DNA from: Enterobacter cloacae
Lineage (GTDB): Bacteria; Pseudomonadota; Gammaproteobacteria; Enterobacterales; Enterobacteriaceae
NCBI GenBank assembly: GCA_014169315.1
Contig: AP022133.1
Location: forward strand, 3,038,001 to 3,102,000
DNA length: 64,000 bases
Reading direction: 5' to 3'
A program made the position numbers and the translations under genes. Below, piece after piece: positions 50,905-53,541 of the stretch. The number at the start of each line of letters is the position of its first letter. Positions within the stretch are counted from its first letter, which is position 1. Below the pieces are notes generated by a model, which saw only the letters and a list, made by a program, of their open reading frames with translations, ran no database searches and was not told the DNA's origin.

Positions 50905-53541
50905 TTACTCGTCAGCGTCATCCGCTGCATCATCGTCAGTGTCCGCTTCCGGCGCGATGTCATCATCACCTTCCGCTACGCTACCGTCGATGGAATCGAG
51001 CTCTTCGTCATCCACTGGCTCAGCAACACGTTGCAGACCCACGACGTTTTCATCTTCCGCAGTACGGATGAGAATAACACCCTGGGTGTTACGACCAACC
51101 ACGCTGATCTCGGAAACGCGCGTACGCACCAGCGTACCGGCATCAGTGATCATCATAATCTGGTCGGTATCATCTACCTGCACCGCGCCCACAACAGAAC
51201 CGTTGCGCTCGGTAACCTTGATAGAGATAACGCCCTGCGTGCCACGAGACTTGGTCGGGTATTCGCTTTCTGCCGTACGTTTACCGTAGCCATTCTGCGT
51301 CACGGTCAGGATGGCACCTTCGCCACGCGGAACGATCAGGGAAACAACTGAGTCTTCACCCGCCAGTTTGATGCCGCGAACGCCGGTCGCAGTACGCCCC
51401 ATTGCGCGCACTGCGTTCTCTTTAAAGCGCACCACTTTACCGGCGGCAGAGAACAGCATCACTTCATCAGAACCGGAGGTCAGATCCACGCCAATCAGCT
51501 CGTCGCCTTCGTTCAGGTTCACCGCGATAATACCGGCAGAACGTGGACGGCTGAACTCGGTCAGCGCAGTTTTCTTCACGGTACCGCTGGCGGTTGCCAT
51601 AAAGACGTTTACGCCTTCTTCGTACTCGCGTACTGGCAGGATGGCGGTGATACGTTCGTTCGCTTCCAGCGGCAGCAGGTTAACGATTGGACGACCACGC
51701 GCGCCACGGCTCGCTTCCGGCAGCTGATAGACTTTCATCCAGTACAGACGACCACGGCTTGAGAAGCAGAGGATCGTGTCATGGGTGTTCGCCACCAGCA
51801 GACGGTCAATAAAGTCTTCTTCTTTAATACGTGCCGCAGATTTGCCTTTACCGCCACGACGCTGTGCTTCGTAGTCGGTCAATGGCTGATACTTCACATA
51901 GCCCTGGTGAGACAGGGTGACCACCACATCTTCGCGGTTGATCAGATCTTCAATGTTGATATCAGAGCTGTTCGCGGTGATTTCGGTGCGACGCTCATCG
52001 CCGAACTGTTCACGTACCAGTTCCAGCTCTTCGCGGATCACTTCCATCAGGCGCTCTGCGCTACCGAGGATATGCAGCAACTCAGCAATCTGCTCCAGCA
52101 GTTCTTTGTATTCGTCGAGCAGTTTTTCATGCTCAAGGCCGGTCAGTTTCTGCAGACGCAGATCCAGAATCGCCTGGGCCTGCTGTTCAGTCAGGTAGTA
52201 CTGACCGTCACGCACGCCGAATTCCGGCTCCAGCCACTCAGGACGCGCAGCGTTATCGCCCGCACGTTCCAGCATCGCCGCCACGTTGCCCAGATCCCAC
52301 GAACGTGCAATCAGGGCTGCTTTTGCTTCAGCCGGCGTTGGCGCACGGCGAATCAGCTCGATAATTGGGTCGATGTTTGCCAGTGCAACGGCCAGTGCTT
52401 CAAGGATATGCGCACGGTCACGCGCTTTGCGCAGTTCGAAGATGGTACGACGGGTCACCACTTCACGGCGGTGACGCACAAACGCGCTCAGGATCTCTTT
52501 CAGGTTCATGATCTTCGGCTGACCGTGGTGCAGCGCCACCATGTTGATACCGAAGGAGACCTGAAGCTGAGTCTGGGAGTACAGGTTGTTCAGAACAACT
52601 TCACCCACCGCGTCGCGTTTGATTTCAATCACGATGCGCATACCGTCTTTGTCAGACTCGTCACGCAGCGCGCTGATACCTTCAACACGTTTTTCTTTTA
52701 CCAGCTCGGCGATTTTTTCAATCAGACGCGCCTTGTTCACCTGATACGGGATCTCGTGAACAATGATGGTTTCACGGCCGGTTTTGGCGTCCGCTTCCAC
52801 TTCGGCGCGGGCACGGATGTATATCTTGCCGCGACCGGTGCGGTACGCTTCTTCAATACCACGACGACCGTTGATGATCGCCGCCGTCGGGAAGTCCGGC
52901 CCCGGGATGTGTTCCATCAGCCCTTCAATGCTGATGTCTTCATCGTCGATATAGGCCAGGCAGCCGTTAATCACTTCCGTAATGTTGTGCGGCGGAATGT
53001 TGGTTGCCATACCGACGGCGATACCTGACGAACCGTTAACCAACAGGTTCGGGATCTTGGTAGGCATGACATCAGGGATTCGCTCGGTGCCGTCGTAGTT
53101 ATCGACGAAATCAACGGTCTCTTTTTCCAGGTCGGCCATCAGCTCGTGAGCGATTTTCGACATACGGATTTCCGTATAACGCATCGCCGCCGCGGAGTCG
53201 CCATCAACAGAACCAAAGTTACCCTGACCATCTACCAGCATGTAACGCAAGGAGAATGGCTGTGCCATACGGACGATGGTGTCATACACGGCAATATCAC
53301 CATGCGGGTGATATTTACCGATGACGTCACCCACGACACGGGCAGATTTTTTGTAGGCTTTATTCCAGTCATTGCCCAATACGTTCATGGCGTATAGTAC
53401 GCGACGGTGTACCGGCTTCAGGCCATCGCGGACGTCCGGCAGCGCACGGCCAACAATGACCGACATCGCATAGTCCAGATAGGAGCTCTTCAGCTCTTCC
53501 TCGATGTTAACCGGTGTAATTTCTCTCGCAAGGTCGCTCAT
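50905..53541 (-). CDS. gyrA: DNA gyrase subunit A, with Ile at position 83
   Basis: Breakage-reunion subunit of gyrase. 878 residues, with catalytic Tyr122 (MRYTEIRM), a GyrA-box region (QRRGGKGK) starting the C-terminal beta-pinwheel domain, and an acidic tail. The quinolone-resistance region reads HPHGDIAVYDTIVRMAQP. Position 83 is Ile (codon ATT, bases 53295-53293) where wild-type Enterobacter and E. coli have Ser (GDSAVYD). Asp87 is wild type. Position 83 substitutions reduce quinolone binding. parC, parE and gyrB are outside this window. The promoter faces ubiG. Confidence 0.97.
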   Translation of the reverse strand: MSDLAREITPVNIEEELKSSYLDYAMSVIVGRALPDVRDGLKPVHRRVLYAMNVLGNDWNKAYKKSARVVGDVIGKYHPHGDIAVYDTIVRMAQPFSLRYMLVDGQGNFGSVDGDSAAAMRYTEIRMSKIAHELMADLEKETVDFVDNYDGTERIPDVMPTKIPNLLVNGSSGIAVGMATNIPPHNITEVINGCLAYIDDEDISIEGLMEHIPGPDFPTAAIINGRRGIEEAYRTGRGKIYIRARAEVEADAKTGRETIIVHEIPYQVNKARLIEKIAELVKEKRVEGISALRDESDKDGMRIVIEIKRDAVGEVVLNNLYSQTQLQVSFGINMVALHHGQPKIMNLKEILSAFVRHRREVVTRRTIFELRKARDRAHILEALAVALANIDPIIELIRRAPTPAEAKAALIARSWDLGNVAAMLERAGDNAARPEWLEPEFGVRDGQYYLTEQQAQAILDLRLQKLTGLEHEKLLDEYKELLEQIAELLHILGSAERLMEVIREELELVREQFGDERRTEITANSSDINIEDLINREDVVVTLSHQGYVKYQPLTDYEAQRRGGKGKSAARIKEEDFIDRLLVANTHDTILCFSSRGRLYWMKVYQLPEASRGARGRPIVNLLPLEANERITAILPVREYEEGVNVFMATASGTVKKTALTEFSRPRSAGIIAVNLNEGDELIGVDLTSGSDEVMLFSAAGKVVRFKENAVRAMGRTATGVRGIKLAGEDSVVSLIVPRGEGAILTVTQNGYGKRTAESEYPTKSRGTQGVISIKVTERNGSVVGAVQVDDTDQIMMITDAGTLVRTRVSEISVVGRNTQGVILIRTAEDENVVGLQRVAEPVDDEELDSIDGSVAEGDDDIAPEADTDDDAADDADE

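What the first reader, a model, noticed from the sequence alone, without database searches (positions are those of the whole stretch)
53293..53295. GyrA Ser83Ile: quinolone-resistance substitution in the chromosomal gyrA
Codon 83 is ATT (Ile) within GDIAVYD; the wild-type residue in Enterobacterales is Ser. This position is the main quinolone-resistance site, and Ile is a known substitution there in Enterobacter. Asp87 and Tyr122 are normal. It suggests a fluoroquinolone-selected, probably clinical, isolate. ompC, glpT and gyrA are otherwise intact.
Basis: partly seen in the sequence, partly recalled or inferred. Interest (0 to 1): 0.7.

Follow-up and report, generated by a model that had tools for sequence, protein, structure and literature searches.

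The report
Thr83Ile quinolone-resistance mutation in gyrA
The gene for DNA gyrase in this Enterobacter carries a well-known mutation that weakens quinolone antibiotics; it is an ordinary resistance change, but it most likely arose from threonine, not from serine as first assumed.

Summary
The window encodes an intact 878-residue GyrA on the minus strand (50905-53541), and codon 83 (53293-53295) is ATT, Ile; Asp87 and Tyr122 are unchanged. It is almost certainly the classical first-step quinolone-target mutation. The stated wild type is wrong for this lineage: among 61 Enterobacter species genomes residue 83 is Thr in 37, Ser in 21 and Ile in 3. All three Ile83 genes carry the Val112-Met127-Ser128 background that goes with Thr83, so this is Thr83Ile. 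ParC, ParE and GyrB are wild type at the sites checked. The drug-selected-isolate inference gains support: the same genome holds a 272-kb plasmid with qnrA1 (0 of 657 bases different from an annotated copy), a CTX-M gene, three sul1-like genes, tet(A) and dfrA. Such genotypes are already described (PMC4616961, PMC5479536). The less ordinary point is that residue 83 sits in a roughly 280-base gyrA block whose genealogy differs from the rest of the gene, which suggests exchange between species. No susceptibility data exist here, so resistance itself is inferred.

The parts
50905..53541 (-). gyrA, DNA gyrase subunit A, intact, 878 aa
   Evidence: TIGR01063 1308 bits, cut-off 877
53293..53295 (-). 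codon 83, ATT (Ile); Thr (ACC) in the closest relatives, Ser in E. coli MG1655
53059..53338 (-). gyrA nt 204-483 (about codons 68-161): block holding codon 83, with its own genealogy across Enterobacter; boundaries chosen by eye
53206..53208 (-). codon 112 Val, Thr-type haplotype marker (Ile in the E. coli-like Ser type)
53158..53163 (-). codons 127-128 Met-Ser, Thr-type haplotype markers (Leu-Ala in the Ser type)
53080..53082 (-). codon 154 Arg, looser haplotype marker (Lys in 17 of the 19 Ser83-Ile112-Leu127-Ala128 genes)

Best explanation
Codon 83 of the chromosomal gyrA has changed from Thr to Ile. Residue 83 lies on the helix of GyrA that contacts the quinolone; a hydroxyl residue there (Ser or Thr), together with the acidic residue at 87, holds the drug through a water-metal-ion bridge. 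Ile lacks the hydroxyl and is bulkier, so the drug binds the gyrase-DNA cleavage complex less well. This mechanism is recalled, not shown here. With ParC wild type, a single step of this kind is expected to give nalidixic-acid resistance and raised but not high-level ciprofloxacin MICs, and QnrA1 from the plasmid in the same cell should add to it (recalled). Shown here: the Ile codon, the intact gene, the Thr-type background, wild-type ParC/ParE/GyrB at the sites checked, and the qnrA1 plasmid. Inferred: that the residue reduces susceptibility in this strain, and that drug use selected it.
For: Ile at codon 83 with unchanged 67, 81, 82, 84, 87, 106, 119 and 122. The 11 nearest gyrA genes by identity (93.4-94.1%) all have Thr83 ACC; the twelfth has Ser. 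Of the 60 genes read in one piece, all 39 with Thr or Ile83 have Val112-Met127-Ser128, and 19 of 21 Ser83 genes have Ile112-Leu127-Ala128. ParC Ser80/Glu84, GyrB Asp426/Lys447 and ParE 445/458/460/464 are wild type. The genome carries qnrA1: QnrA model 513.8 bits against cut-off 450, 0 of 657 bases different from the annotated qnrA1 of pECC59-1. Sul1, CTX-M family, Tet(A), DfrA1-like and ANT proteins are on the same contig. A second genome, G015, has Ile83 together with ParC Ser80Ile. In print: among 75 E. cloacae isolates Ser/Thr83Ile alone was seen in 19, and 17 of 23 PMQR-positive isolates had exactly one QRDR mutation (PMC4616961, section 19); T83I is listed for an E. asburiae isolate scored against an E. 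asburiae reference (PMC5479536, passages).
Against: No MIC or drug-exposure data. Only one genome per species could be read, so it is unknown whether other strains of this species have Thr83. ACC to ATT takes two base changes (or an ACT ancestor), so the simplest one-step story is not shown. On the whole-gene tree the window is sister to an 18-row clade that is mainly Ser83 (SH-aLRT 95), which by itself would allow a Ser ancestor. Ile83 ATT is also present in Rheinheimera sp. D18 (L057), so Ile83 does not strictly require clinical selection.
Confidence: 0.87

Rival explanations
1. Ser83Ile: the ancestor had Ser and changed to Ile.
For: The whole-gene tree places the window as sister to a mainly Ser83 clade, SH-aLRT 95; the first 200 bases of gyrA are identical to Ser83 genes such as G016. 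Ser83Ile is a common name in print: 100 papers hold the terms gyrA, S83I, Enterobacter, ciprofloxacin and parC, 25 of them listed, not all about Enterobacter GyrA.
Against: Inside the block around codon 83 the window has 36 of 280 mismatches to the Ser83 gene G016 but 8 and 12 of 280 to the Thr83 genes G028 and G018, and carries the Thr-type residues 112/127/128/154. TCC to ATT would need three base changes.
Confidence: 0.04
2. Ile83 is the natural state of this species and not drug-selected.
For: Only one genome of the species is held; ATT is two changes from the neighbours' ACC, which would fit some age; Ile83 occurs in 1 of the 80 loci kept, Rheinheimera sp. D18.
Against: 58 of 61 genomes of the genus have Thr or Ser, and the three with Ile lie on separate branches. 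The genome carries qnrA1 and a multiresistance plasmid whose qnrA1 stretch is 99.9% identical to plasmids of E. hormaechei from human samples.
Confidence: 0.07
3. The Ile83 codon came in by recombination with another Enterobacter that already had Ile83, rather than by mutation in place.
For: Blocks around codon 83 seem to have moved between species in this genus. Another genome, G048, has the same ATT codon on a Thr-type block in a gene otherwise close to a Ser83 species. Against the gene with the nearest block, G028, the window has fewer mismatches inside the block than outside (8 of 280 against 102 of 1670, uncorrected p 0.025), so a block from a G028-like source is possible.
Against: G028 itself has Thr ACC, so it is no Ile donor. 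The window's block is only 93.9% identical to that of G048 and 97.1% to that of G028. Against G018 there is no such contrast (12 of 280 against 79 of 1670, p 0.88).
Confidence: 0.07
4. Sequencing error at 53293-53295.
For: Reads are not available.
Against: Two bases differ from the ACC of the neighbours and the result is exactly a known resistance residue; the assembly is scored 100% complete and 0.03% contaminated, with the window in one 4.6-Mb contig, and the frame is intact.
Confidence: 0.01

Closest known systems
GyrA Ser/Thr83Ile in Enterobacter cloacae isolates (PMC4616961; section 19 and passages)
   Same: Same residue, same replacement, ParC unchanged in 19 of the 20 Ile isolates of its Table 3; qnrA1 found in nine isolates of that collection.
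   Different: The strain's MIC is not known here; the paper's passages do not give codons.
GyrA T83I in E. asburiae isolate 63_S31, and 'S83I, I112V, L127M, A128S' in isolate 43_S20 (PMC5479536, Table 2, passages)
   Same: 43_S20, scored against E. cloacae ATCC 13047, lists the same linked differences (83, 112, 127, 128) that mark Ile83 on the Thr-type haplotype in the window.
   Different: 63_S31 is listed with ParC E84K too; the window's ParC is wild type there. 43_S20 has other plasmid quinolone genes (aac(6')-Ib-cr, qnrB49), and residue 154 is not in its list.
GyrA T83I in Citrobacter freundii (PMC5479536, passages) and Pseudomonas aeruginosa (PMC12724665, start of abstract)
   Same: Thr83 replaced by Ile.
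   Different: Other genera.

Membership tests
GyrA QRDR codon-83 quinolone-resistance mutation | Non-Ser/Thr residue at GyrA position 83 (E. coli numbering) in an intact chromosomal gyrA | tested here: met
   Ile83, 878-aa intact frame
GyrA QRDR codon-83 quinolone-resistance mutation | Derived state relative to close relatives | tested here: met
   58 of 61 genus genomes Thr or Ser; nearest 11 all Thr. Within-species state not available.
GyrA QRDR codon-83 quinolone-resistance mutation | Raised nalidixic-acid and ciprofloxacin MIC | not testable with these tools
   No phenotype held
   Thr-type haplotype V112-M127-S128-R154 and Thr83 in the nearest block sequences; the whole-gene tree alone would not exclude Ser
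Multi-target fluoroquinolone-resistance genotype | Further changes at GyrA 87 or in ParC | tested here: not met
   Asp87, ParC Ser80 and Glu84 wild type
Plasmid-mediated quinolone resistance (Qnr) | Qnr pentapeptide-repeat protein over the curated cut-off | tested here: met
   NF000071 QnrA 513.8 bits, cut-off 450; 0 of 657 bases differ from annotated qnrA1

The most novel reading that the evidence does not exclude
Residue 83 of GyrA in Enterobacter is carried by a short block (about nt 204-483) that has repeatedly been exchanged between species by homologous recombination. The 'wild type' at the main quinolone site, Ser or Thr, is therefore a property of the block a lineage holds, not of the species. 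The mutational distance to Ile differs between the blocks (one base change from the Thr codons seen, at least two from TCC), so the block would shape which resistance alleles a lineage shows, and resistance callers with a Ser reference would misname natural Thr83 as S83T and T83I as S83I.
Probability: 0.6. Interest if true: 0.4.

Novelty: already known. Interest (0 to 1): 0.2.

Why it matters
As a resistance mutation it matters only locally: it flags a first-step quinolone-target mutant that also carries qnrA1 and a large multiresistance plasmid. The correction matters a little more widely: using Ser83 as the universal Enterobacter reference misstates the residue for most species of the genus (37 of 61 read here are Thr), and natural Thr83 can then be listed as a mutation. 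Papers that list 'S83T' among Enterobacterales mutations exist (PMC11726957, 12 isolates, species not seen; PMC12061968, one C. freundii; passages); that these are natural Thr83 is my inference.

Tried and rejected
Ser83 as ancestor: disfavoured on haplotype evidence. A shared Ile83 import with G048: considered because both have ATT; disfavoured because the blocks are only 93.9% alike and each groups with a Thr gene on the block tree, the window with G028 (85) and G048 with G053 (91). Secondary target mutations: looked for at the named sites of parC, parE and gyrB, not found (gyrB was read from residue 217 on, parC to residue 739). Five literature searches touched the Ser/Thr question or gyrA exchange; the two aimed at recombination listed no paper whose title or abstract start concerns gyrA exchange in Enterobacter. 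Of those 20 listed papers none was opened, so this is weak evidence of absence. aac(6')-Ib-cr, oqxAB and qepA were not searched for. Of the 20 plasmid stretches fetched, six were compared with the plasmid collection, and nine reading frames were scanned by family, so the resistance inventory is incomplete; contig C4 was fetched to base 40000 of 49849, C5 and C6 to 2000 of 2644 and 2421.

The block boundaries (nt 204-483) were set by eye after seeing the site table, so the Fisher tests are descriptive. The trees are quick searches without bootstrap, and the 12-versus-1 change count has no shuffled control; the count of 1 also rests on a poorly resolved fork, since G022 and G025 (Ser83) sit among Thr blocks. 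On the whole-gene tree with codon 83 removed the three-state count was 10. Rows dropped: E. mori (identical to G033) and G054 (gene split over two contigs) were left out and sequences were cut at nt 1950, leaving 66 rows; one of 61 parC codons (G003) was not covered by the stretch fetched.

Full report
What is there. The minus-strand frame 50905-53541 encodes GyrA, 878 residues, one terminal stop, no ambiguous bases, matched by the curated gyrA model at 1308 bits with cut-off 877. Codon 83, at 53293-53295, reads ATT on the coding strand, Ile. Compared with E. coli MG1655, residues 67, 81, 82, 84, 87, 106, 119 and 122 are unchanged.

Where it comes from. The window lies in a 4.6-Mb contig of a 5.0-Mb, six-contig assembly. 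gyrA of the named Enterobacter mori LMG 25706 (L064) is identical to that of one of the 61 genomes in the same genus set, so the genus is Enterobacter. The species could not be named: the best gyrA match in the genus is 94%.

Residue 83 across the genus. I read codon 83 in all 61 species genomes returned (60 genes in one piece, one of them lacking its first 11 bases, and one gene split over two contigs): Thr 37 (27 ACC, 5 ACT, 5 ACA), Ser 21 (all TCC), Ile 3 (the window ATT, G048 ATT, G015 ATC). The 11 gyrA genes nearest to the window by identity all have Thr ACC. The statement that the wild-type residue is Ser is therefore not correct for this genus as a whole, nor for the window's nearest relatives. 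Outside the genus, Klebsiella michiganensis, Raoultella terrigena, Cedecea neteri and Buttiauxella warmboldiae also have Thr, E. coli MG1655 and Atlantibacter hermannii Ser.

Thr83Ile, not Ser83Ile. Residue 83 travels with residues 112, 127 and 128. In the 60 one-piece genes all 36 Thr83 and all 3 Ile83 genes have Val-Met-Ser, while 19 of 21 Ser83 genes have the E. coli-like Ile-Leu-Ala; the two exceptions, G022 and G025, are Ser83 with Val-Met-Ser. The window has Val-Met-Ser and Arg154. Within nt 204-483 it differs from the Ser83 gene G016 at 36 of 280 sites and from the Thr83 genes G018 and G028 at 12 and 8 of 280. A published table scores one isolate against E. cloacae ATCC 13047 as 'S83I, I112V, L127M, A128S' (PMC5479536, isolate 43_S20, passages). 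Those are the same linked sites, so its 'S83I' is best read as T83I as well (my inference). Against this, the whole-gene tree sets the window beside a mainly Ser83 clade (SH-aLRT 95), and ATT is two changes from the ACC of the neighbours.

A block with its own history. On a tree of gyrA without the block (66 rows, nt 1-203 and 484-1950) the Ser versus Thr/Ile state needs 12 changes; on the block's own tree, codon 83 removed, it needs 1. Pairs that are close elsewhere differ sharply in the block: G012 and G005, 34 of 280 against 57 of 1670; G044 and G005, 36 of 280 against 77 of 1670; G048 and G041, 32 of 280 against 80 of 1670. G048, one of the other Ile83 genomes, has a gene otherwise closest to the Ser83 gene G041, with a block most like that of G053, which has Thr ACT. 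The plainest reading is repeated exchange of the block between Enterobacter species. Long-retained ancestral variation is not excluded; the block limits were chosen by eye, the trees are quick ones without bootstrap, many forks of the block tree are unresolved, and no shuffled control was run.

Does it confer resistance here? ParC 57, 78, 80 and 84, GyrB 426, 447, 464 and 466, and ParE 416, 420, 444, 445, 458, 460, 464, 475 and 529 are as in MG1655 (E. coli stretches). Across the genus, ParC codon 80 was readable in 60 of 61 genomes: Ser in 59 and Ile in 1, G015, which also has GyrA Ile83. So the window's genome has a first-step target genotype. Its 272-kb contig C2 carries a QnrA protein (513.8 bits, cut-off 450) whose gene is identical over 657 bases to the qnrA1 annotated on pECC59-1 of E. 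hormaechei from a human lavage. The same contig has three dihydropteroate-synthase genes of equal score, of which the one scanned is Sul1, a DfrA1-like protein, a CTX-M-family beta-lactamase, Tet(A), ANT(2'')-Ia and two AadA-family proteins, and 20 kb identical to plasmid stretches annotated with mcr-9.2. The 20-kb stretch with qnrA1 matches five listed E. hormaechei plasmids from human samples at 99.9%, and one Salmonella plasmid at 100% in four pieces; the neighbouring stretch matches best a Salmonella plasmid from a pig, 94% covered. This supports a multidrug-resistant isolate under drug selection; it does not prove a clinical source.

What is known. In 75 E. [quoted passage not shown] The window's genotype, one GyrA change plus qnrA1 with ParC unchanged, is that pattern. 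T83I is listed for an E. asburiae isolate and for C. freundii (PMC5479536, passages). 'Ser/Thr83' as the reference state is also used in PMC7067590 (passages). The finding is thus an instance of a known mutation. The structural reason, loss of the hydroxyl that with Asp87 holds the water-metal-ion bridge to the drug, is recalled; solved structures of close GyrA relatives exist (49 distinct sequences at E up to 1e-100), but I did not examine them.

Verdict. Ordinary and already known, with two corrections of use: the ancestral residue is most likely Thr, and residue 83 in this genus belongs to a block that seems to have moved between species. I found no description of such a block in Enterobacter in the two searches aimed at it (listings only), which is weak evidence.

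Noticed in passing
window 53059-53338 and the gyrA genes of other Enterobacter genomes: gyrA nt 204-483 has a genealogy that conflicts with the rest of the gene: 12 Ser/Thr changes on the flank tree, 1 on the block tree. It looks like repeated exchange of the QRDR block between species.
   Followed up: partly
G000 contig C2 (272100 bases), bases about 100000-160000 (L238-L240): Multiresistance region with qnrA1, CTX-M family, three sul1-like genes, tet(A), dfrA1-like, ANT genes and an IS91/ISCR-type transposase, plus a stretch identical to mcr-9.2-annotated plasmids; 20 kb are 99.9% identical to E. hormaechei plasmid pECC59-1 (typed IncHI2A by PLSDB), which has a mercury operon there.
   Followed up: partly
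L126 (G015 gyrA) and L189 (G015 parC): Another Enterobacter species genome with GyrA Ile83 (ATC) on the Thr-type block and ParC Ser80Ile; its sister on the tree, G050, has Thr ACC.
   Followed up: yes
L088 (G019 gyrA): Asp87Asn (AAC) on Thr83, with ParC Ser80 and Glu84 unchanged.
   Followed up: no
L102 (G048 gyrA): Ile83 (ATT) on a Thr-type block most like G053 (ACT), in a gene otherwise closest to a Ser83 gene.
   Followed up: partly
L057 (Rheinheimera sp. D18) and L023 (Photorhabdus tasmaniensis): Ile83 and Gly83, respectively, at the same gyrA codon in genera not known to me as clinical quinolone-resistant lineages.
   Followed up: no
G000 contig C4 (49849 bases), L251: 13 kb reported as 100.0% identical to a plasmid of a freshwater Citrobacter annotated with glycosyltransferase, Stealth-domain and galF genes: surface-polysaccharide genes on a plasmid.
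   Followed up: no
G000 contig C3 (74230 bases), L248: Only patchy matches to known plasmids (best listed record covers 64% of the 20-kb stretch), that record being a freshwater Citrobacter freundii plasmid with mercury and arsenic resistance genes under the match.
   Followed up: no
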